A stretch of 33,862 nucleotides of DNA from Hydrogenophilales bacterium CG_4_10_14_3_um_filter_63_21 (lineage in GTDB: Bacteria; Pseudomonadota; Gammaproteobacteria; Burkholderiales; Thiobacillaceae): the NCBI GenBank assembly GCA_002784045.1, contig PFJX01000057.1, forward strand, positions 1 to 33,862. The letters run 5' to 3'. The notes under the pieces were generated by a model, which worked only from the letters and a program-made list of their open reading frames with translations, did no database searches and was not told the DNA's origin. Positions 17,117-28,615 of the stretch are shown here, one piece after another (position 1 is the first letter of the stretch; every line of letters begins with the position of its first letter). The position numbers and the translations under genes are program-made.

Positions 17117-20100
17117 ATGCAATCCGATTCCGATACCGCCGCGCCTGAAGCGAGCGAGGCGCCCGCGTCGCCGCCTCGGCAACTTCCGCCTGACCCGATG
17201 AAGCGCAAGAAACGCCGCTTTTTGATCGGGGTGCTGATCGTGCTGGCGCTGATTGTCGGCGCGGTCATCGCCGCCTATGAAATGATCGCCTCGCCGTTCC
17301 AGGCGATGTTGCTGGCGGGCTATGGCAAGCGCCTGACGTTCCAGATCGAAGCGGGTGAGGCCGCCGCTCCGCGCGTACCGAAGTATGGTCCCTACAACCT
17401 GCGCACCGGCTATGCCAGGCTGCCGGAGTTCGTGCGCAAACTGAAGGGACAGGATTTCGAAGTCACCGCGCAGGCGCGCATCTCGCCGGATATGGCGCGC
17501 ATTTTCGATTACGGCCTCTACCTGCCATACAAGGAAAAATCCGTCACTGGCCTGTCTCTGCTCGATTGCAGCGGGCGTGGCCTCTATGAGGCGCGTTTTC
17601 CGCGCTATGCCTACGCCGATTTCACCGCCGTGCCGCCGCTGATCGCCAACACCCTGTTGTTCATCGAAAACCGCGAACTGCTCGACCCCAACCACCCGCA
17701 GCGCAACCCCGCCGTGGAATGGGACCGCCTGGCCGAGGCCGTGATGGAAAAGGCGATCCAGACCGTGGACCCCTCTCGCAATGTTCCGGGCGGCTCCACT
17801 CTGGCCACCCAGATCGAGAAATATCGCCACTCGCCCGACGGCCTGACCATGACGGCGACCGACAAGCTCACCCAGATGGCCTCCGCCTCGCTGCGCGCCT
17901 ATCTGGATGGCGAGGACACGCGCGCCACCCGCCGCCGCATCGTCCTGGATTATCTCAATACCGTGCCCCTCTCGGCCGCGCCCGGCTTTGGCGAGGTCAA
18001 CGGCATCGGCGAAGGGCTGGAGGGCTGGTTCGGCCTCGCTTTCTCCCGGGTCAACCAGTCGCTGATGCGGCCGCGCGAGACAGCGGAAGCGGCGCGCGCC
18101 TACAAGCATGTGCTGGCCCTCCTGATTTCGCAGCGCAAGCCCTCGTATCACCTGCTGAGTGGGCGCCGCAGCCTGAATGCCTATGCCGATACGCATTTGC
18201 GCCTGCTCGCGGCCGCGCACGTCATTACGCCGGCCTTCCGCGATCTCGCCCTGCGCGAAAAAATCGTGTTCCAGAACCATGGCGGCAAGAAATCCGCGAA
18301 TGGCGGCTTCGCCGAGAACAAGGCGGCCAGCACCCTGCGCGTGGAAGTCGCGGAACGCCTGGGGGTGGCGCGCCTGTATGACCTCGATCGCCTCGACCTG
18401 AAGGCCAGCGCCACCCTGCATGGGGCCACCCAAAGAACGGTTTCGGATTTCCTGCGCCGCCTGTCCGACCCGGTGGTGGTGGAGGCCGCTGGCCTCTATG
18501 GGCACTACCTGCTGGCGCCGGAAAATGATCTCTCCAAACCTATCTACAGCTTCACCCTCTACGAGAACAGCGAGGAGGGCGCCCTGTTGCGGGTGCAGGC
18601 TGATAACCTGAATCAGCCCTTCGACATCAACAAGAGCGCCAAGCTGGACATGGGCTCCTCGGCCAAGCTGCGCACCCTCATCACCTACCTGCAACTGGTT
18701 ACCGAGCTGCATGATCAGTACGCCGCCGCGCCCCGCGCCGAGCTGCTCAAGCTGAAAATTGCCGACAAGGATATGTTGCTGCGGTGGGTGCGCGACTATC
18801 TGCTACAAGCCGAGGACAAATCGCTTCCCGCCATGCTGGAAGCGGCGATGGCGCGGACCTATTCCGCCAGCCCGGCGGAAGCCTTCTATACCGGCGGCGG
18901 GGTGCACCATTTCCACAATTTCCACAGCCCCGACGACCACAAGGTGATGGACTTGTGGGAGGCCACCCAGAATTCCGTGAACCTGCCCTTCATCCGCCTG
19001 ATGCGCGATCTGGTGCGCCACTTCATGTACCGCGATCCCGAGGGCGCCGCGCAAATCCTGGCCGACCCCGATGACCCCCGGCGCGAGGTTTATCTGAAAC
19101 GCTTCGCCGACAAGGAAGGCAAGGCTTATCTCGCCCGCTTCAACAAGAAATACAAAGGGTTGCAGCCTGCGGCGGCGACCGAGGCGCTGCTCAACCATCT
19201 CACCGCCAACCCCAAGCGCCTGGCCGCCGTGTTCCGCTATCTGGAACCGAATGCCGATGTCGCGGCCCTCACCGATTTCCTGAAAGCGCGTCTCAACAAT
19301 CCCGCCAGCCTCGACGAGGGCGACTACCAATACCTGTATGAAACCTACGGCCCGGACAAATTCAACCTCGCCGACCGCGGCTACATCGCCCAGATTCACC
19401 CCCTGGAACTCTGGTTGGTGGCCTATCTGCGCGCCCATCCCGGCGCCGGCTGGAAGGAAATCGTCAAGGCCAGCTTTCAGGAACGGATCGATGTCTATGG
19501 CTGGCTGCTCAACACCAGCCACAAGAACGCGCAGGACATCCGCATTCTCTCCTTGCTGGAAATCGAAGCCTTCCAGGAAATCCACAAGCGCTGGCGCCGC
19601 CTCGGCTACCCCTTCGGCAGCCTGGTGCCGTCCTATGCCACCGCCATCGGCTCCTCGGCCGACCGCCCGGCCGCCCTGGCCGAGTTGATGGGGGTGATTC
19701 TCAACGACGGTGAAAAACTGCCGCCGATCACCCTGACTCGCCTGGAATTCGCCGCCGGCACGCCCTACCACACGCTGCTCAAGCGCAAGCGTCCCGTGCC
19801 ACAGCGCATCTTCCCGGTCGTCGTTGCGAGCGTGGTGAAGCGGGCACTGGCGAATGTGGTGGAACAGGGCACCGCGCGGCGGCTACGCGGCGCCTTCGCC
19901 CTGGGCGACGGCAGCACCCTGCCGATCGGCGGCAAGACCGGCACCGGCGACCACCGCCTCGAGGTCTATTCCGCGCGCGGCCAGGTCATCGAATCGAAAG
20001 TCATGAACCGCACCGCGACGTTCGCCTTCTACCTGGGCACGCGGTTCTTCGGGGTGATGACCGTGTTTGTGCCGGGCGAAGCGGCGGCGGACTACCACTT

Positions 20101-20557
20101 CACCAGCGCCATCGCCGTGCAGATCGTGAAAGACATGGAACCCGCCCTGCGCGGCATGGTGCTGGGCAGCGAAAAGCCGGAGCCGGGCTGGGATGAGCTG
20201 GCGCTCGCCTTTGATAGTGAAGCCGATGTCGCCAGCGGCGCACTGCCCAAGGTCGAAGCCCTGCCGCCGCCAGGAACCCCGCTGGCCGCGCCCGCGGCGG
20301 CCACGCCAGCCGCGAAAAAGCCGATTGCCGCCGCGAAGCCGGCGGTGCGCAAGCCCGTTCCCGCCAAGCCGGTGGCCAAACCCACCGCCAAGACGGCAGC
20401 CCGCCCCGAGCCGGAACACGCAGAACCGCCGCCCGCTCCGCCACCGCCACAAATGGACAAGCCGGATCCGCCGCCCCCGCCGCGCGCTCCACCGCCTACC
20501 CCGAAGACCAGGAAATCCGGCTGGACCTGGCAGGAAGGCGACAACCCCCTGTTCTGA
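17117..20557 (+). CDS. Large class A penicillin-binding-protein-like transglycosylase/transpeptidase
   Basis: This 1146-residue protein should build peptidoglycan from lipid II and cross-link it. A Pro-rich cytoplasmic start is followed by one membrane anchor (about 35-57). A family 51 glycosyltransferase domain lies at about 165-345, with catalytic-type Glu184 (FIENREL), GGSTLATQ (225-232) and RRRIVLDYLNTVP. A transpeptidase domain follows with SxxK (SSAK, 514-517), SxN (SVN, 620-622) and KTGTGD (940-945). The SxxK-SxN spacing (about 105 aa) and the SxN-KTG spacing (about 320 aa) are far longer than usual, so large insertions sit in the transpeptidase. The last 80 residues are Lys/Ala/Pro-rich. 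The gene starts 6 nt after hemF without a clear ribosome site, so coupled translation or a start at 17198 is possible. It is probably a divergent PBP1-type enzyme. Confidence 0.87.
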   Translation: MQSDSDTAAPEASEAPASPPRQLPPDPMKRKKRRFLIGVLIVLALIVGAVIAAYEMIASPFQAMLLAGYGKRLTFQIEAGEAAAPRVPKYGPYNLRTGYARLPEFVRKLKGQDFEVTAQARISPDMARIFDYGLYLPYKEKSVTGLSLLDCSGRGLYEARFPRYAYADFTAVPPLIANTLLFIENRELLDPNHPQRNPAVEWDRLAEAVMEKAIQTVDPSRNVPGGSTLATQIEKYRHSPDGLTMTATDKLTQMASASLRAYLDGEDTRATRRRIVLDYLNTVPLSAAPGFGEVNGIGEGLEGWFGLAFSRVNQSLMRPRETAEAARAYKHVLALLISQRKPSYHLLSGRRSLNAYADTHLRLLAAAHVITPAFRDLALREKIVFQNHGGKKSANGGFAENKAASTLRVEVAERLGVARLYDLDRLDLKASATLHGATQRTVSDFLRRLSDPVVVEAAGLYGHYLLAPENDLSKPIYSFTLYENSEEGALLRVQADNLNQPFDINKSAKLDMGSSAKLRTLITYLQLVTELHDQYAAAPRAELLKLKIADKDMLLRWVRDYLLQAEDKSLPAMLEAAMARTYSASPAEAFYTGGGVHHFHNFHSPDDHKVMDLWEATQNSVNLPFIRLMRDLVRHFMYRDPEGAAQILADPDDPRREVYLKRFADKEGKAYLARFNKKYKGLQPAAATEALLNHLTANPKRLAAVFRYLEPNADVAALTDFLKARLNNPASLDEGDYQYLYETYGPDKFNLADRGYIAQIHPLELWLVAYLRAHPGAGWKEIVKASFQERIDVYGWLLNTSHKNAQDIRILSLLEIEAFQEIHKRWRRLGYPFGSLVPSYATAIGSSADRPAALAELMGVILNDGEKLPPITLTRLEFAAGTPYHTLLKRKRPVPQRIFPVVVASVVKRALANVVEQGTARRLRGAFALGDGSTLPIGGKTGTGDHRLEVYSARGQVIESKVMNRTATFAFYLGTRFFGVMTVFVPGEAAADYHFTSAIAVQIVKDMEPALRGMVLGSEKPEPGWDELALAFDSEADVASGALPKVEALPPPGTPLAAPAAATPAAKKPIAAAKPAVRKPVPAKPVAKPTAKTAARPEPEHAEPPPAPPPPQMDKPDPPPPPRAPPPTPKTRKSGWTWQEGDNPLF

Positions 20558-20642: not shown

Positions 20643-21380
20643 CTATATTTTTCTCGCGCCAGCCGCCAGCCCAGCCACCACCACCAAGGCCAGCACGATG
20701 GCCGCACCCGAGGGCAGATCGAACAGGCCGGACGCGATCAGGCCGAGCGCATAGCCGGCTGCCCCGATGGCATAAGCGCGCGCCAGACGTTCTCCGGACG
20801 CCAAGGCCGGCACGATCAGGCTGGCGAACACCAGATAGATGCCGACCACCTGCACCGAGGCGGTGATGCTGACGGCAAACAACAGGTAAAAGCCGAGCGG
20901 CGAGGCGCGCCAGCCAAGGCCGAACCAGGCCGCCAGCACCAGCGCGGTGACCGCTGCCAGCGGCAGCAATCCGTTCCAGGTGGTCCACAGGATCTGCCCC
21001 ACCAACAGGTCTTGCAGATGCTCCGCGCCGTGCGGGTCATGGCTCATCAGGATCAGCGCCAGGCAGGCGGCGGCGACAAAGGTGACGCCGATGATTGCCT
21101 CCTGTCTGGCGCCAGCGGTCTTTTCCATGTGGCGCAGGAACAAGGCGCCAAGCAAGGCCGCCGTGACGGCGCCGGCTTGAGTGAGCCAAGGACTGTCCTC
21201 GCCGCCCAGGCTATGGGCGATCACCACGCCCAGGCCGGCGATCTGGGCGATGGCGAGATCGAGGAAAACGATGCCGCGCCGCAATACCGCCTGGCCGAGC
21301 GGCACATGGCTGGCCAGCACCAGCAGTCCCGCCACGAAGGCGGGCAGGAGGATGGCGGGTTCGAGGGAGGCGAGATTCAT
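20643..21380 (-). CDS. znuB: Zinc/manganese-type ABC transporter permease (ZnuB-like)
   Basis: This is an integral membrane permease of the ABC-3 family, 245 residues, with about eight hydrophobic segments. Family blocks include ILLPAFVAGLLVLASHVPLG, GIVFLDLAIAQIAGLG, DLLVGQILWTTW and YLVFASLIVPALA. A His-rich stretch, SHDPHGAEHLQD, lies at about 118-129. The frame is open further upstream, but the ATG at 21380 has GAGGGGAG at a good distance. This start overlaps the stop of the binding-protein gene (ATGA), so the two are translationally coupled. The metal is not proven; zinc is inferred from the binding protein. No ATPase gene is adjacent. Confidence 0.88.
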   Translation of the reverse strand: MNLASLEPAILLPAFVAGLLVLASHVPLGQAVLRRGIVFLDLAIAQIAGLGVVIAHSLGGEDSPWLTQAGAVTAALLGALFLRHMEKTAGARQEAIIGVTFVAAACLALILMSHDPHGAEHLQDLLVGQILWTTWNGLLPLAAVTALVLAAWFGLGWRASPLGFYLLFAVSITASVQVVGIYLVFASLIVPALASGERLARAYAIGAAGYALGLIASGLFDLPSGAAIVLALVVVAGLAAGARKI

Positions 21381-22273
21381 TTCAGCGCTCCCCTCAGCTT
21401 CGCCAGCGTGTCGTCGAACAAGCTGAACAAGTCTTGCGCCGCCACCGAGCCGCCCACGGTGTAGGGCAATTCCACAGCGGCCATGCCGGCACGCTTGGCC
21501 AGCCATTCGGAGGGCTTGGGCGACTGATAGGCGGTGCGCAGGATCAGCCGCGCCGGTTGCGCCTTGAGCCGCTGCAGCAGGCTGGAAAGCGAGGACACCG
21601 AAGGCTCGATGCCCGGCTTGGGTTCCAGGTCCGCCACCACTTTCAGGCCCAGCCAGTCGGCGAGATAGCTCCAGCTCTTGTGATGCACCACCACCGGCAC
21701 GCCGCGCAAGCCGGCGGCGTCCTTCTCCCAGCGCGCGATGGCCGCCGCCATGCGTTTCTGGAAGTCCTGGTTGCGTGCGGCATACACGGCGGCATTGGCC
21801 GGGTCCAGTTGCGCCAGGCGCGGCGCCAGCGCATTCGCCACTTTCAGCAGATTGCGCGGGTCAGCCTGCAAATGCGGATTGCCACCGGGATGCACATCCC
21901 CCTGGGCGCGGTCGGCGCTGCCGGTTTTCTCCAGCAGGCGGACTTGCGCCGCCGCCTCGAAATACCCCGGCTGCCCGGGATGGATGCGGGCATTGCCGGA
22001 TTCCCGCTGCAACAGCGGCAGCCAGCCGATTTCCAGTTCGGCGCCGGTGCAGACCAGCAGATCGGCGTTGCGCGCGCGGGCGATCAAGGATGGCCGCGCC
22101 TCGATGTGATGCGGGTCTTGCCGCGCCGTGGTGGCGGACGTGATGCGCGCCAGGTCGCCGGCCAGTTCCTGGGCCAGTGACGCCCATTCCGGTTCGCAGG
22201 CGAGGACGTTGAGGGCGGCTTGAGCGGCATTGGCCGTCAGCAGCAGAGTCAGGAAAATGAATCGGATAAACAT
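21377..22273 (-). CDS. znuA: Periplasmic zinc-type metal-binding protein (ZnuA-like)
   Basis: This is the substrate-binding protein of a cluster A-I metal ABC transporter, 298 residues. A signal peptide of about 19-20 residues ends AAQA. Conserved metal-ligand positions are present: His55/56 (DPHHIEARPS), His128/134 (DVHPGGNPHLQADP) and His197/198 (VVVHHKSW). Three His ligands favour zinc over manganese. The C-terminal ELPYTVGG block matches the family, but the fourth ligand is not obvious. The long His-rich loop of E. coli ZnuA is missing; only the short HPGGNPH part stands in its place. AAAGGAA precedes the ATG. It is followed by the permease with a 4-nt overlap. Confidence 0.9.
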   Translation of the reverse strand: MFIRFIFLTLLLTANAAQAALNVLACEPEWASLAQELAGDLARITSATTARQDPHHIEARPSLIARARNADLLVCTGAELEIGWLPLLQRESGNARIHPGQPGYFEAAAQVRLLEKTGSADRAQGDVHPGGNPHLQADPRNLLKVANALAPRLAQLDPANAAVYAARNQDFQKRMAAAIARWEKDAAGLRGVPVVVHHKSWSYLADWLGLKVVADLEPKPGIEPSVSSLSSLLQRLKAQPARLILRTAYQSPKPSEWLAKRAGMAAVELPYTVGGSVAAQDLFSLFDDTLAKLRGALK

Positions 22274-22300
22274 GATGTGGATTCCTTTGGATGAATTACG

Positions 22301-22323
22301 AAGGGTGCACCGTGCGCACCCTC
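22301..22323. repeat. GGGTGCGCCGTGCGCACC-type palindromic repeat, copy 2 (short)
   Basis: agggtgc (22302-22308) and gcaccct (22316-22322) form a perfect 7-bp stem around accgtgc. This is the same core as at 16123 and 23689, but only one arm of the larger element remains. It fills most of the 66-nt gap between the outer-membrane gene and the binding-protein gene. Confidence 0.65.
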
Positions 22324-22339
22324 CGCTGTGTCGCCTGGT

Positions 22340-23668
22340 TCAGAACTTGTGTGCGCCGTGCGGGCCCAGGCTGTAGAGGTATTGAAGGCTGATCTGGCTG
22401 TCGTCCGGGTTGCCCTGCATCGAGCGGTCGCGCGCCAGTTGCAGGCGGAATAGCGAGAACTCGCTCGGCGCGTAGTCGGCCATCAGGCTCCACTTGTTCG
22501 GGCTGTATGCGGCCGGCAGCAAACGGGCGTTGTTGGCGCCGTAATCCAGGTTGCCCTGGTTCAAGCGGTCGTAACGCAGGCCGGCGCGCCAGTGCGGCAT
22601 GAACTGGTAAACCCCTTGCGCATACCAGCCGGATTGGCGGGCGCGGTAGGCGCCGGGTGAAGGGGCGCCGGCGCTGTCGTAGACCAGTTCACCCGTTTCA
22701 TTGCGCTGGAAGTATTCGCTCTGAAATTTGAAGTTGCGTTCCTTCGGGTTGCCGTCCGGCGCCCATTTCCAGATGAAATCCGCGATCCAGGTGTTCGAGC
22801 GGCCGCTGAACAGGTTGAGGGTGTCTATGCCGGTGTTATTCAGCAGCAGGCTTTCCCGTTCGCGTGGCCGTGCCGACAGCCAGGACAGGCCGGCGCGCCA
22901 GGCATTCGATTCGCCGACATCGCCGCCGACATGGCCGAAGATCGTCCAGGCGCCAGCGCCGTTCTTGTCGCCACCCGCTTCGGAGCCGGGGAAGGCGCTG
23001 CCGCGTCCGATTTCCGCACCGAGTTCAACAAAGGTATCCACCGGCGCCAGCCATTTGAGTTGCAGGCCATCCTGCACCAGGTGCTCCCCGAACAGGGTCT
23101 GGACCATCAGGTTGTTGTCGGCGAAATCCCAGGCGTGCGGGTGTTGCTCGTTGGCGTAGCCGATACCGGAGATGAAGCGGCCGCCTTTGAGGGTCAGGCC
23201 GTGGTCGAGTGCGAGGGTCTGGAACCAGGCTTCCTCCACGATCGCCTGGCCGTCGGCCAGGATCACATTGGCCAGGCCGCGGAAATAGGGGTCGATGTTG
23301 GCCGCCAGAATCAACTCGGTGTCGTTCAGGGAAAAGCCGCGCCTGGGCGTGCCAATCCCGGCATCTTGCAAGAAGCCCGTGGGCCGGCGCTCGCCCGCTT
23401 TCCTCTGCGCGTAACTGCCTTGCAGGATCAGCGACAGCTCGGGGTTGGCGGCGCTGGCCGGCGGGCTGGTGGCTGGCTCGGGGTTGGCAGTCGGTGGCGC
23501 CAGGCGCGCTTCCATTTCCGCCAGGCGGGCTTCATAGGCGGCCTGGATTTCCTTGAGTTTCTGATCGAACTCGGCGCGCAGTTGCGCCAAATCGGCATCC
23601 GTGACGGCCGCGGCCGGCAGGGGCAGCGCGCACGCCAAAGCGGCGGCGAGCAGGGGTGGCTTGAACAT
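22340..23668 (-). CDS. Outer-membrane beta-barrel protein linked to metal uptake
   Basis: This 442-residue exported protein starts with a signal peptide ending near residue 21 (LPLPAAAV). A short coiled coil follows (about 24-58, ADLAQLRAEFDQKLKEIQ) and then a Pro/Ala spacer. The rest alternates hydrophobic and polar residues with many aromatic and Gly residues, as in a 14-18-strand barrel. It ends SLGPHGAHKF; the terminal Phe is the usual BAM assembly signal. It has no TonB box or plug domain that I can see, so it looks like a porin rather than a TonB receptor. Operon position just before the ZnuA-like and ZnuB-like genes suggests it lets metal across the outer membrane. That is inference. 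AAGGA precedes the ATG. Confidence 0.83.
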   Translation of the reverse strand: MFKPPLLAAALACALPLPAAAVTDADLAQLRAEFDQKLKEIQAAYEARLAEMEARLAPPTANPEPATSPPASAANPELSLILQGSYAQRKAGERRPTGFLQDAGIGTPRRGFSLNDTELILAANIDPYFRGLANVILADGQAIVEEAWFQTLALDHGLTLKGGRFISGIGYANEQHPHAWDFADNNLMVQTLFGEHLVQDGLQLKWLAPVDTFVELGAEIGRGSAFPGSEAGGDKNGAGAWTIFGHVGGDVGESNAWRAGLSWLSARPRERESLLLNNTGIDTLNLFSGRSNTWIADFIWKWAPDGNPKERNFKFQSEYFQRNETGELVYDSAGAPSPGAYRARQSGWYAQGVYQFMPHWRAGLRYDRLNQGNLDYGANNARLLPAAYSPNKWSLMADYAPSEFSLFRLQLARDRSMQGNPDDSQISLQYLYSLGPHGAHKF

Positions 23669-24173: not shown

Positions 24174-24890
24174 TTATCTGTCAAAGGCCGGCGGGAGGGC
24201 GTTTTCGATCATGGCGCGGAAAGTCTCGACCTCTTTGCTCGGGCCGATGACGACCAGGACGTCGTTGAAATCCAGGTGGTGGTCGATGCCGCGGGTGCTG
24301 AAGATCAGTTCCTTGCCCCGCTCCAGATCCACCACGCCGAGCAGGATGACGTTCTGCTGCATGTGCCGGCGCAGTTCCGAGAGGTACACGCCATGCAGCC
24401 AGGAGCCGGAGGGAATGGTGACTTCGGCGATGTTGAGGTCTTGCAGGCCGAACACCGTTTGTTCCATGAGTTCCACCACTTCCGGGCGTTCGATCAATTC
24501 GTGCACGCGGGCGCCGCTGATTTCGTAGGGGTCCACCACCTTGTCGGCGCCGGCGGCGAGCAGTTTGGCGGCGGCTTCCGGCGCCTGGCAGACGGCGACG
24601 ATACGCAGCGCGGGGTCGAGCGCCCGCGCGGAGATCGCCAGGAACACATTTTCCGAATCCTCTCCGAGCAGGCAGAACACGCCTTCGATATGGCTACCGA
24701 TGCCCACGGCGCGCAGGGCGGCGTCGTCGGTGTAGTCGATGCGCTCGGCGGCAAGGCCTTCCTGGCGTGCTGCCTCGACCCGCCCGGCATCGCGGTCGAG
24801 CATGGCGAAGGGCAGCCGCGCCAGCGACAGGCGCCAGGCCACCTCGATGGCCAGCGGGTTGCAGCCGAACAGGGCGAATCTGGGGGTCAT
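24174..24890 (-). CDS. TrkA-type NAD-binding potassium regulatory protein
   Basis: This is a soluble 238-residue protein with a Rossmann-type TrkA-N domain (1-125) and a TrkA-C domain (about 140-235). The start, FALFGCNPLAIEVAWRL, replaces the usual GxGxxG with GCNPLA, so NAD binding may be altered. LLGEDSENVFLAISAR and GADKVVDPYEISGARV match RCK subunits. Its ATG overlaps the stop of the channel gene upstream by 4 nt (ATGA), so the two are coupled. It may form mixed gating rings with the channel's own RCK domain, but this is inference. A TTG further upstream of the next gene overlaps this gene's end. Confidence 0.88.
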   Translation of the reverse strand: MTPRFALFGCNPLAIEVAWRLSLARLPFAMLDRDAGRVEAARQEGLAAERIDYTDDAALRAVGIGSHIEGVFCLLGEDSENVFLAISARALDPALRIVAVCQAPEAAAKLLAAGADKVVDPYEISGARVHELIERPEVVELMEQTVFGLQDLNIAEVTIPSGSWLHGVYLSELRRHMQQNVILLGVVDLERGKELIFSTRGIDHHLDFNDVLVVIGPSKEVETFRAMIENALPPAFDR

Positions 24891-26482
24891 ATGTTTTTTC
24901 GTCGGCTGGCTTGTTCATGGAACTGTGCCAGGCTGGCCTGATAGCCGATGAGCATGAGGATGTCGCCCGCGCGCAGTTGCAGGCGCGGGCCCGGGTTGAA
25001 GTAGAAATGGCGGCCCGCGAGGTCATAGCGGCGGTGGCCGCTTTCGCCAGGGGAGGTGTGCGGGCGGATCACGCCGAACAGCAACAAGTGCTGGGCGGCG
25101 AAGTCGATCGCGCCGATGCGCCGCAGCGCCAGCCAGTCGCCCGCGCGCACCGGTAGCGGCTCCAGGAACACCCCGACGGCGCGCGTGACCACATCGTAGA
25201 GGGCGTCGAACGCCACCGGCTGGCCGATGAATTCCGCCGCCATGCGCGCCACCACCTCATACGGCCGCACGACGTGGGTGGCGCCCGCCTGGGTGAGCTT
25301 CTTCACCGTTTCCGCCTTGTTGGCGCGGGAGATGATGAGAATGTCGGGCGACACCTGGCGCGCGGTGAGGGTGATATAGACGTTGCTCACGTCGTCATGG
25401 GTCAGGCAGAGGATGCGCGAGGCCTGGCGGCCGAGGCCGAGATTGGCGAGCAGGGCGCTATCGGTGGCGTCCCCGGCCACCGCCGGAAAGCCGCGCCGGC
25501 GCGCGAGTTCAATGCTCTCGACTTGCTTGTCGACGATGACGAAGGGCTCGCGCGCGGCGGCCAGGCGCTCCGCCACCACCTGGCCGATGCGCCCGAAACC
25601 GCACACGATGGTGAGGTCGGACTTGCGCTCCACCTCGGCATAGACCCGGTTGTCGCGCAGATCGCGCATCTTCTCCTGGAAGGCCATGACGATGATGGAG
25701 GTGGCGAAGGAAATCACGCCGATGCCGGCGAACACCAGCACCATCGCCACCACGCGGCCTTCCGTGGTGGTCGGCACGATGTCGCCGTAGCCGACCGTGG
25801 TCAGGGTGACGACTGCCCAGTAGAGGGCGTCCATCAGGGTGAGTACCTGGCTGCCCGGGGCTTGGGCCTCGAACAGATAGATGGCCACCGTGGCGATCAG
25901 CACCACCGAGCCGACGAACAGGGACAGGGTGTAAAGCTCGAAGCGCTTTTCCACCAGCACCTCGCCGAAGGCACTCAGGCTGCGCGCATAACGGAACAGC
26001 TTGAACAGGCGGAACAGGAGAAACAAGCGCAGGAAACGCAGCGGCCGATAACTGGGCAGGATCGCCAGCAGGTCGATGATGGCCAGGGGTGAACTCATGT
26101 AAGCCAATTTTCGCCGCAGCACGGCCCATAGCGCCGCGCCAGTATTGAACGGAAGCCCCATCAGTTCCGCGCGTTCCCAGTGTTCGATGAGGATCGTGTG
26201 GCTGTCGTTGTAGAGCCACATACGCAACAGGTACTCGCTAACGAACACCGCCACCACCAAGGCCTCGAACAGATCGGCCCAGGGCCCTAGCGGGTGGCGC
26301 ACCCCATAGATCAGCAGCATCACGCTGGACAGCACCAGCACCAGCATGAAGGCGTCGAACAGCGCTCGGCGATGCGAGCGCGGATCGGTCAGCAGCTTGC
26401 GAAAGAAGCCCTTGAGGCGGCCATGCCGGTCGGACGCTTGCAGCCGATAAGCCAGACGGACCAACAACTGGGCGATAGACAT
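24887..26482 (-). CDS. Voltage-gated-type potassium channel with RCK/TrkA domain
   Basis: This 531-residue inner-membrane protein has six transmembrane helices (about 42-260). S4 carries regularly spaced charges (RPLRFLRLFLLFRLFKLFRYAR, about 146-167), a voltage-sensor pattern. The pore loop has the selectivity filter TTVGYGD (about 228-234). A cytoplasmic TrkA-N domain begins at about 290 with GFGRIGQVVAE. A TrkA-C domain follows to about 525. This is the Kch/Kv-RCK layout, though the insert between S3 and S2 is long. The ATG at 26482 is chosen because MSIAQLLVRLAYRL makes a sensible start; no good ribosome site is visible, and 26590 would add 36 residues. It overlaps the following TrkA gene. 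Confidence 0.92.
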   Translation of the reverse strand: MSIAQLLVRLAYRLQASDRHGRLKGFFRKLLTDPRSHRRALFDAFMLVLVLSSVMLLIYGVRHPLGPWADLFEALVVAVFVSEYLLRMWLYNDSHTILIEHWERAELMGLPFNTGAALWAVLRRKLAYMSSPLAIIDLLAILPSYRPLRFLRLFLLFRLFKLFRYARSLSAFGEVLVEKRFELYTLSLFVGSVVLIATVAIYLFEAQAPGSQVLTLMDALYWAVVTLTTVGYGDIVPTTTEGRVVAMVLVFAGIGVISFATSIIVMAFQEKMRDLRDNRVYAEVERKSDLTIVCGFGRIGQVVAERLAAAREPFVIVDKQVESIELARRRGFPAVAGDATDSALLANLGLGRQASRILCLTHDDVSNVYITLTARQVSPDILIISRANKAETVKKLTQAGATHVVRPYEVVARMAAEFIGQPVAFDALYDVVTRAVGVFLEPLPVRAGDWLALRRIGAIDFAAQHLLLFGVIRPHTSPGESGHRRYDLAGRHFYFNPGPRLQLRAGDILMLIGYQASLAQFHEQASRRKNI

Positions 26483-26691
26483 GGCACCGAAAAAGGCTTG
26501 AAAAGATTCGGGAATTATCGCGGAAATCGGCGCGCGACAAGATCGCCATGGCGAAATGCTCATAAACCCCCGCCATCGGCCCATAAACAAAGCTTCGCTG
26601 ACAGCGCGGGGGCGCCTCGGTAAACTCGCGCGCCATCACGCTCATCAAGTCAATCGCTGGACCGCCCCAGGGTTGACTTGGCCTTCTCGGG

Positions 26692-26714: not shown

Positions 26715-26764
26715 CGGGGGCACTACCCATCACCGTTTTCCTTAAATTCTCAAGGAGTTGTCTT

Positions 26765-28615
26765 ATGGCTACCCGTGACACCCTGGCCGCCCGCGCCGCC
26801 ACTGCTTCCAGCGCCGCCGATCTGTTCGCCCTTGCCCGCGAAGCCTTCGAGGCGCCGGCCGATATGGCCTACGCCAAGGAACTCCTGAGCGGCGCCGCCT
26901 TCGCCGGCGACGCCGGCGCGAAAGCCGCGCTCGACAAGGTCGCCGGTGACGCCATGTTCACCAAGGATTTCGTCGCCCTGGCCATTGGCTACCAGGCGCT
27001 GGGTGAGGCCGGAAAGGCCAAGGACATGCTCGGCCAGGGTGCCGACTTCGCCATGGACGGCAGCGAGAAAGTGGCCGTGGGCATGGGCCAGTGGCTGGCG
27101 CTGGGGGATGCCGCCGCGGCCGGCCGTGCGCTCGCCGGTGCCCTGAAGGAAGTTTCAGCCACCGAAGAACTCTACGGGCTGGCCGCCGTGGTGGCCGAGT
27201 TGAACGACGCCACCCTGTTCGGCCAGATCGCCGACAAGATCAAAACCAAGGCCGGCCGCGCCGGTGACTTCGCGCGCCTGGCCAAGATGCTGGCCAGCGG
27301 CGGCGATCAATCGAAAGCCGTGGAAATCATCAACGAAGGCGCGGCCAAGTACGGTAACCCGGCCGACCTGATCGTGCTGTCCGGCGCGATGGGCGAAATC
27401 GACCCGGCCGCCGCCGGCGCGCTGTACGACAAGGCGCTCGACTCCGCCAAGAATTTCACCGCCCTGATGCAGGTGCTGGCCGCCGCCGCCGGCAACGAAA
27501 CCTTTACCCAGGCCGTGCTGGCCAAGGGCAGTGCCATCGCCCAGAGCACCGGCGAGTTTCTGCAACTGGTCGAAGCCAACGCCACCCGTGGCAATGCCGC
27601 CGGAGTGGCCGACATGCTGACCCGCGCCGAGGATGCCGTGAACAACCTCGACGACATGCGCAAAATTGTCGAGGCGGTGGACAAACACGCCGCCACCGAT
27701 GTCGAGCGCGCGACCCGCCTGAAGGATCGTCTGGCCAAGCGCGAAGCCAACCAGGCCAAGTATGTCGCCATCCAGAACGAGGAAGAAAAGGCCAAGACGG
27801 TCAAGCAGTTCATCGGCCTGGCCGACCGCATCATGGCGGAACTGGATGACGCCTCTTACGCTTCCAAGCTGCTGACCTCCGCCGAAGACCTGATGCGCGG
27901 CGAAGGCGCTTTCCACTTCGCCCGTTTCAAGCCCCTGATCCTGGCCGTCGACCGCCTTGGCGACAAGCCCTGGCTGGGCAAGCTGCTGGATGAAAGCGTG
28001 GCCGCCGCCGCCGACTTCGTCTGGTTCCGCGAGATCATCATGACCTGCGCTGGCGAACTGAAGGACACCGCGTATGGCAAGGCGCGCGCCTGCGTGTTCG
28101 TGGCCGAGCGCGCGCTCGGCGACAACCCCTACGACTACACCAAGATGGCCGAAACCGTGCAGACCGCCCTGGGCGACTCCGCGCTCGCCGCCAAGCTGCT
28201 GGGGGATGCCGCCAGCCGCGCCAAGGATCACTACGCGCTGGCCCATATCGCCAAGCTGTACCGCGACATCGGTGACCACACCGCCGCCAATGCCCTGTTC
28301 GCCCAGGCCGCTGCCGCCTGTGGCAACGGCGACACCTGCGTGCAACTGGCTAACCGCCTGAAATCCTATGAATTGCCCAAGTCCGAAATCGCTCCGCTGA
28401 TGAGCGCCTGCGGCGCCAAGCTGGCCTCGGCCGCCGACAAGCTGCGCTGGGCCGAAGGCGTATCCGATCTGCTGCTCGACGGCGCCTGGGCGGAGCAGGC
28501 CTTCAACAGCATCGCCGCCAGCTTCGCCAGTGGCGCCGACAAGAAGCGCTTCGAAGTCAGCCGCCAGATGCGCATGGGCTACCGCTACTTCGGCCCCGGC
28601 GTAGAAGCGCACTGA
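26765..28615 (+). CDS. Alanine-rich helical-repeat protein of unknown function
   Basis: I do not recognise this 616-residue protein. It is almost entirely alpha-helical and rich in Ala, Leu, Asp and Lys, with no signal peptide, membrane segment or catalytic motif. A repeated pattern (A-x-x-LL-x-x-A, then a second helix) is visible near residues 37, 85, 185, 217, 249, 282, 366, 403, 475 and 507. Several neighbours lie 32-33 residues apart, for example 185, 217, 249 and 282. This predicts a TPR- or HEAT-like superhelix. A charged segment at about 318-345 breaks the array. The end reads RQMRMGYRYFGPG. AGGAG sits 7 nt before the ATG, a strong site suggesting good expression. It stands alone between oppositely directed genes and is flanked downstream by a dispersed repeat. 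Confidence 0.9.
   Translation: MATRDTLAARAATASSAADLFALAREAFEAPADMAYAKELLSGAAFAGDAGAKAALDKVAGDAMFTKDFVALAIGYQALGEAGKAKDMLGQGADFAMDGSEKVAVGMGQWLALGDAAAAGRALAGALKEVSATEELYGLAAVVAELNDATLFGQIADKIKTKAGRAGDFARLAKMLASGGDQSKAVEIINEGAAKYGNPADLIVLSGAMGEIDPAAAGALYDKALDSAKNFTALMQVLAAAAGNETFTQAVLAKGSAIAQSTGEFLQLVEANATRGNAAGVADMLTRAEDAVNNLDDMRKIVEAVDKHAATDVERATRLKDRLAKREANQAKYVAIQNEEEKAKTVKQFIGLADRIMAELDDASYASKLLTSAEDLMRGEGAFHFARFKPLILAVDRLGDKPWLGKLLDESVAAAADFVWFREIIMTCAGELKDTAYGKARACVFVAERALGDNPYDYTKMAETVQTALGDSALAAKLLGDAASRAKDHYALAHIAKLYRDIGDHTAANALFAQAAAACGNGDTCVQLANRLKSYELPKSEIAPLMSACGAKLASAADKLRWAEGVSDLLLDGAWAEQAFNSIAASFASGADKKRFEVSRQMRMGYRYFGPGVEAH

What the first reader, a model, noticed from the sequence alone, without database searches (positions are those of the whole stretch)
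26765..28615. Orphan 616-aa alanine-rich helical superhelix with no known domain
The protein is a well-expressed-looking stand-alone gene (AGGAG, 7 nt spacing) built from about ten degenerate two-helix units, several exactly 32-33 residues apart. It has no enzyme motif, signal or membrane segment. I cannot match it to a named family. Such superhelices usually act as large protein-binding scaffolds, so it may organise an unknown complex. It is the best candidate for an undescribed system in this window.
Basis: partly seen in the sequence, partly recalled or inferred. Interest (0 to 1): 0.75.

Follow-up and report, generated by a model that had tools for sequence, protein, structure and literature searches.

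The report
Unnamed TPR-like scaffold in sulfur oxidizers
This is a real, conserved gene for a long coiled-rod protein of tetratricopeptide-like repeats that nearly all members of one sulfur-oxidizing bacterial family carry; no library searched names it, its fold is of a familiar scaffold type, and its partner is unknown.

Summary
Window 26765-28615 (+) encodes a 616-aa all-helical protein with AGGAG 7 nt before ATG, purifying selection and the strongest codon bias of 22 called window genes. It has no Pfam or NCBIfam match above cut-off. AlphaFold2 gives a confident superhelix (pLDDT 88.6, pTM 0.52) of about 16 helix pairs, not ten. A 34-residue repeat profile finds 15 units here (9 strong) and 20-21 in distant gammaproteobacterial homologues. 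The repeat is TPR-like, so 'no known domain' is too strong. The family is nearly universal in the host's own family (106 of 117 genomes; inferred Thiobacillaceae) and otherwise rare and patchy. All eight carriers found outside it have the sulfur-oxidation gene aprA, and seven of eight have dsrA; the eighth carries only a gene fragment. Most aprA-bearing genomes sampled lack the protein. A link to hslVU is seen in 18 of 41 loci but not in the window's clade. Best reading: an abundant cytoplasmic protein-binding scaffold or assembly factor of sulfur lithotrophs; the scaffold part is well supported, the link to sulfur metabolism is correlative. It is a new, unnamed family of a known kind.

The parts
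26765..28615 (+). CDS, 616-aa TPR-like alpha-solenoid protein (with stop)
26753..26757 (+). AGGAG ribosome-binding site, 7 nt before ATG
   Evidence: read
26598..26626 (+). weak sigma-70-like promoter match (9 of 12); 1 found in the region scanned, 0.2 expected
   Evidence: consensus match only
26813..27748 (+). N-terminal solenoid, residues 17-328: one cap pair, a linker, then 8 regular helix pairs
   Evidence: helix list; repeat profile
27740..27790 (+). extra helix and its lead-in, residues 326-342 (R326, A328, N329, Y333, E340 invariant in the 15 aligned sequences); not significantly denser in invariant residues than chance
27800..28522 (+). C-terminal solenoid, residues 346-586, 7 helix pairs

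Best explanation
The gene encodes an abundant cytoplasmic TPR-like superhelical protein that acts by binding other proteins along its concave surface, as a scaffold or assembly factor, in chemolithotrophic sulfur oxidizers. Shown: a real conserved gene; a repeat solenoid of TPR-like units whose number differs between lineages; near-universal presence in its family; rare presence elsewhere, in the samples searched only in genomes with aprA. Inferred: cytoplasmic (no signal or membrane segment evident), high expression (from codon bias), protein binding (from the fold class), and a client tied to sulfur lithotrophy (from co-occurrence only).
For: AlphaFold2 pLDDT 88.6, 37 helices, no strand. Foldseek's best rows are chains of spliceosome, Paf1, Ski, IFT-A and O-GlcNAc transferase entries and PPR10, with two designed repeat proteins among them; that the chains concerned are HAT or TPR rods is recalled. 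VIA rows include the OGT TPR domain 1w3b at Z 9.9. The family profile finds a designed TPR protein in the PDB at 1.3e-6 and CLF1 at 0.033. Homologues reach TPR models: TPR_8 26.0 bits against a cut-off of 25.7 in one of five scanned. 34-residue repeat. 106 of 117 family genomes, 57 of 59 of the good ones. aprA: 8 of 8 gene-bearing genomes against 101 of 361 others in the class sample (hypergeometric p 4.8e-5, 1.6e-4 without the window's genome). dsrA: 7 of 8 outside the family against 37 of 141 gene-less genomes (Fisher p 8e-4). In genus g46, G395 has gene and aprA, G150 and G366 have neither, all three have dsrA.
Against: Most aprA+ genomes lack the gene (101 of 109 in the class sample), so it is not needed for that pathway in general. 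The markers were chosen after seeing the carriers, and carriers are clustered: by family four cases outside the host's in the class sample, p about 0.01 with an approximate family count; dsrA in the class subset alone is 6 of 7 against 21 of 62, p 0.012. No sulfur gene is a conserved neighbour; sat lies about 5 kb away in G565 and, by reading, in its congener G801. The Pfam TPR models do not reach the protein itself. pTM 0.52 leaves the overall curvature unsure.
Confidence: 0.5

Rival explanations
1. Adaptor, substrate-delivery factor or assembly factor of the HslUV protease, reflecting an ancestral hslV-hslU-X arrangement.
For: hslU lies upstream on the same strand in 18 of 41 distinct loci, next gene in 11 with gaps of 93-254 bp, in both deep branches of the family and four genes away in G395 of another family.
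Against: The link is not seen in the held flanks of the window's clade and of many others; on reading the called genes, none of the gammaproteobacterial loci has hslVU beside it; hslVU is far more widespread than this gene (recalled). The pattern also fits mere inherited gene order.
Confidence: 0.12
2. RNA-processing factor: a HAT-like superhelix that organizes an RNA-protein complex.
For: The best Foldseek row and several VIA rows are spliceosome and Rrp5 chains (HAT nature recalled); a polyA polymerase gene (pcnB) is the divergent neighbour in both f113 loci scanned.
Against: Such matches are common for any long TPR-like rod; the protein is acidic (pI 5.18); no HAT model was among the Pfam matches; pcnB was not noticed beside the gene in other lineages.
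Confidence: 0.08
3. A general housekeeping scaffold (for example of cell envelope or chromosome) that happens to sit in lineages that oxidize sulfur; the aprA link is shared ancestry and sampling.
For: Carriers form few clusters; most aprA+ genomes lack it.
Against: Patchy carriers in five further families (f35, f113, f144, f167, f206) all have aprA, and G395 differs from its two aprA-less congeners.
Confidence: 0.3

Closest known systems
TPR superhelices (for example the O-GlcNAc transferase TPR domain 1w3b, Ctr9, Ski3, designed CTPR proteins)
   Same: 34-residue two-helix unit, small residues at the helix crossings, long superhelical rod in the model, presumed peptide/protein-binding groove
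   Different: below Pfam TPR cut-offs in this protein; helix A about one residue longer before a L-G-D turn, no proline near position 32 of the consensus (reading of the consensus against the recalled TPR consensus); no fused catalytic domain
HAT-repeat proteins (CRNKL1/CLF1, Rrp5 C-terminal domain, CstF77)
   Same: among the best structural matches by Foldseek and VIA, weak profile match to CLF1 (E 0.033)
   Different: eukaryotic RNA-processing factors (recalled); no HAT model among the Pfam matches, no constant RNA-processing neighbour
Bacterial TPR proteins named in NCBIfam (PrsT, FimV C-terminal, MamA, LapB)
   Same: one to three of 15 homologues reach each of these models at E 7.9e-8 to 0.0056 (cut-offs not shown there)
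   Different: the window protein itself matches none; no signal, lipoprotein or membrane part evident

Membership tests
TPR repeat superfamily | tandem two-helix units of about 34 residues | tested here: met
   helix starts mostly 31-34 apart; repeat profile with 15 units here (9 at i-E below 0.01) and 20-21 in the long homologues
TPR repeat superfamily | score above a curated TPR model cut-off | tested here: not met
   no TPR model for the window protein at E up to 1; one of five homologues just passes TPR_8. Hence 'TPR-like', not filed as a canonical TPR protein
TPR repeat superfamily | superhelical fold similar to solved TPR rods | tested here: inconclusive
   Foldseek E 2e-7 to 7e-5 in the 50 rows shown; VIA Z 8.4 to 12.7 in the rows shown, mostly over part of the rod or at high rmsd, below the 13 or so that helical repeats may reach by common arrangement
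HAT repeat family | HAT sequence motif and role in RNA processing | tested here: inconclusive
   weak profile match to CLF1 (E 0.033); no HAT row in the Pfam scans; role not testable
Named family in NCBIfam, Pfam, PHROGs or PADLOC | match above cut-off, or strong match where no cut-off is given | tested here: not met
   best PHROGs E 0.031, best PADLOC E 0.056. Talin_R4 in one homologue (28.3 against 27 bits) is taken as a chance helical match
HslUV accessory factor | binds HslU or HslV | not testable with these tools
   only gene order available

The most novel reading that the evidence does not exclude
The protein is a dedicated cytoplasmic scaffold that gathers the enzymes of sulfite or sulfur oxidation (Apr, Sat, rDsr and their sulfur carriers) into one assembly in certain chemolithotrophs, with rod length tuned by whole-repeat gain or loss (20-21 units in gammaproteobacteria, about 15-16 in Thiobacillaceae).
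Probability: 0.1. Interest if true: 0.7.

Novelty: new member of a known kind. Interest (0 to 1): 0.35.

Why it matters
A conserved, apparently well-expressed, near-universal gene of an environmentally important family of sulfur oxidizers has no name or model in the libraries searched. Its co-occurrence with aprA gives a concrete, cheap hypothesis (deletion and pull-down in a laboratory Thiobacillus). If it proves to scaffold sulfur-oxidation enzymes it would bear on how cytoplasmic sulfur intermediates are channelled; if not, it is one more lineage-specific TPR-like scaffold.

Tried and rejected
Named families: nothing above cut-off in Pfam or NCBIfam, nothing better than E 0.03 in PHROGs and PADLOC. 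PDB by single sequence: none at E up to 1. Plasmids and phages: no match. A paralogue in the window's own genome: none at E up to 10. A second match in G004 (37% over 83 residues, E 5.4e-4) falls in a 412-aa ORF of the same strand that reads as a glycosyltransferase (the name is my reading) and was rejected as chance; my notebook entry calls it antisense, which is wrong. A conserved functional patch at residues 326-340: the density of invariant residues is matched by 771 of 2000 random draws, so no site is claimed. Downstream terminator: none found on the + strand. Literature: nine word searches, three of them empty and some with capped lists (12 of 15, 10 of 66 and 8 of 915 papers shown), gave no paper recognisable from the listing as describing this family; none was a search by sequence. 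I opened one paper, PMC3753534 (passages only); its main text has no hslU, hslV or tetratricopeptide. The rest were seen as search listings. dsrA as the sharp marker was set aside: dsrA+ genomes without the gene are common (21 of 62 and 16 of 79 gene-less genomes), and G596, with only a gene fragment, lacks dsrA.

Rows dropped: alignment A1 holds the window protein and 16 of the 25 loci; L022 was left out because its reference ran past a stop, the others for brevity or truncation. The neighbour count leaves out L025, L031 and L048, where my simple gene caller did not return the focal ORF, truncated L032, and two duplicates. 'Gene-less' means no match with profile A1 at E up to 1e-3; a very diverged copy could be missed.

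Full report
The gene. Window 26765-28615 on the + strand reads as one 616-aa protein, ATG to TGA, with AGGAG ending 7 nt before the ATG. An upstream in-frame TTG would lengthen the ORF to 26678, but the methionine at 26765 is invariant in 17 aligned homologues. Coding is certain: six comparisons with relatives give dN/dS 0.16-0.31 and most changes in third positions. The effective number of codons is 32.1 (computed on the longer ORF), the lowest of 22 called genes of at least 200 aa in the window, and the homologue ranks lowest in 21 of 43 loci (two of the 43 are duplicates); this points to high expression but does not measure it. The protein is 22.7% alanine, pI 5.18.

What it looks like. The protein matches no Pfam model above cut-off, the only match at E up to 1 being DUF7273 at 16 bits against 31, and no NCBIfam model. 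From an alignment of 17 sequences (68-87% identical to the window protein), AlphaFold2 predicts 37 helices and no strands at mean pLDDT 88.6, pTM 0.52. I count about 16 helix pairs: one N-terminal pair, eight pairs from residue 66 to 328, an extra helix 330-342, and seven pairs from 346 to 586, plus a last helix. First helices start 31-34 residues apart, with exceptions of 51 (at the extra helix), 39 and 37.

The repeat. A 34-position profile built by iteration from seeds in nine proteins, this one included, finds 15 units here (9 at i-E below 0.01), 13-14 in two other short homologues (G122, G395) and 20-21 in six gammaproteobacterial homologues; the consensus is SFEDLLALAAGVAEDLGDKDWARELLEKAEEKCT. 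On this protein it scores 88.8 bits; of 50 shuffles, 32 gave any match, the best 1.8 bits. The width was set at 34 by the seeds, but neighbouring seeds such as 318, 352 and 386 in G565 are 34 apart of themselves. The short proteins lack roughly 155-170 residues that the long ones have behind the N-terminal cap, as expected if whole blocks of repeats were lost or gained.

Fold class. Foldseek's best PDB rows are chains of spliceosome (E 2e-7), Pol II-Paf1, IFT-A, Ski and O-GlcNAc transferase entries and PPR10, with two designed repeat proteins among them; that these chains are HAT, TPR or related rods is recalled. VIA-align lists retromer VPS35, spliceosome, Rrp5 and O-GlcNAc transferase chains at Z 8.4-12.7, mostly over part of the rod or at high rmsd; its note warns that values below about 13 can be common for helical repeats. 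The profile of 15 diverse homologues finds a designed TPR protein at E 1.3e-6 and CLF1 at 0.033. One of five homologues just passes Pfam TPR_8, and one to three of 15 touch TPR models of NCBIfam. So the protein is TPR-like. It fails the curated TPR cut-offs and is not filed as a canonical TPR protein.

Who has it. In its own family 106 of 117 genomes match, 57 of 59 of those at least 90% complete and at most 5% contaminated, in 12 of 12 genera. Record titles of matching loci include Thiobacillaceae bacterium, Hydrogenophilales bacterium and Thiobacillus denitrificans, though others say Gallionellaceae, Tepidiphilus or Hydrogenophilus, so Thiobacillaceae is an inference. In the order sample 12 of 399 genomes match, all in this family but one, G395 of family f35. 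In the class sample 8 of 369 match: the window's genome and seven in families f113, f206, f167 and f144. In the phylum sample 2 of 299, both of the own family. In f113 3 of 3 held genomes have it; the order of f206 has two held genomes and both have it. G596 (f144) has only pieces matching the two ends, in different frames. A tree of 31 rows puts the six long gammaproteobacterial proteins together and places G395 with the Thiobacillus-type branch (99/98), with a long-branch caution.

Link to sulfur oxidation. The carriers looked like sulfur oxidizers, so I tested two markers, chosen after seeing the carriers. dsrA (TIGR02064, counted at E up to 1e-80): present in 10 of 10 family carriers tested (one partial, below the cut-off) and 7 of 8 carriers outside, against 21 of 62 gene-less genomes picked by handle number from the class sample and 16 of 79 from the order sample. 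Fisher p is 8e-4 for 7 of 8 against 37 of 141, and 0.012 for the class subset alone, 6 of 7 against 21 of 62. aprA (TIGR02061): in the whole class sample 109 of 369 genomes have it at E up to 1e-50, and all 8 carriers are among them (p 4.8e-5, 1.6e-4 without the window's genome; by family, with an approximate family count, about 0.01). In a chosen set of 75, 16 of 18 carriers have a full-length aprA and two a fragment; 27 of 37 gene-less dsrA+ genomes have it at E up to 1e-50 and 0 of 20 gene-less dsrA- genomes (two of these have weaker matches near 1e-32). In genus g46, G395 has gene and aprA, while G150 and G366 have neither; all three have dsrA. Against the link: 101 of 109 aprA+ genomes of the class sample lack the gene, and the carriers are phylogenetically clustered. 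The association holds in these samples but is correlative.

Neighbours. In the window the gene stands alone between a divergent potassium-channel-like gene (Ion_trans plus TrkA-N) and a convergent M1 aminopeptidase gene. In 41 distinct loci, hslU is upstream on the same strand in 18 and the next gene in 11, with gaps of 93-254 bp (HslU and HslV named from my reading of the sequences; HslU's AAA domains). This order occurs in both deep branches of the family and, looser, in G395. It is not seen in the held flanks of the window's clade, nor, on reading the called genes, in the gammaproteobacterial loci, where pcnB (f113) or Rrf2 and phosphoglucomutase genes (f206) lie near instead. I read it as an ancestral arrangement that is not strictly kept.

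How it probably works. A long TPR-like rod without a recognised enzyme domain most likely binds peptides or proteins along its groove. Strong codon bias and near-universal presence suggest a constant need in these chemolithotrophs. I therefore favour a cytoplasmic scaffold or assembly factor, with a client in or near sulfur lithotrophy as the leading but unproven idea. HslUV adaptor, RNA-binding HAT-like factor and an unrelated general scaffold are the rivals.

Verdict. What is new is an unnamed family of a familiar structural kind, not an undescribed system.

Noticed in passing
window 20643-23668: Zinc-uptake genes (ABC-3 permease, ZnuA) and a 442-aa protein without a Pfam match lie a few genes upstream of the focal gene; a homologue of ZnuA or of the 442-aa protein, or both, also lies within six genes of the focal gene in L026, L035-L038, L050 and L053.
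   Followed up: partly
window 24174-26590: An Ion_trans/TrkA-N potassium-channel-like protein and a separate TrkA-N/TrkA-C protein stand in tandem and overlap by four bases.
   Followed up: no
window 17117-20557: A 1146-aa protein whose only Pfam match at E up to 1e-5 is a transglycosylase domain at residues 165-313; its long remainder and proline-rich tail are unexplained.
   Followed up: no
L080 957-1468: In G596 only pieces matching the two ends of the family remain, in two different frames: a shortened or decayed copy, in the one carrier outside the family without dsrA.
   Followed up: partly
L079 2699-5083: A GT41 (O-GlcNAc-transferase-like) protein with many canonical TPRs on the same contig as the G734 homologue.
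   Followed up: no
L038 10808-11878: A DUF6866 gene follows the focal homologue in seven Thiobacillus-type loci and lies near it in L010 of the window's genus (cluster 4; DUF6866).
   Followed up: no
G092:C195 and G043:C256/C263: Two family genomes show a second, partial or stop-bearing copy besides the main one.
   Followed up: no
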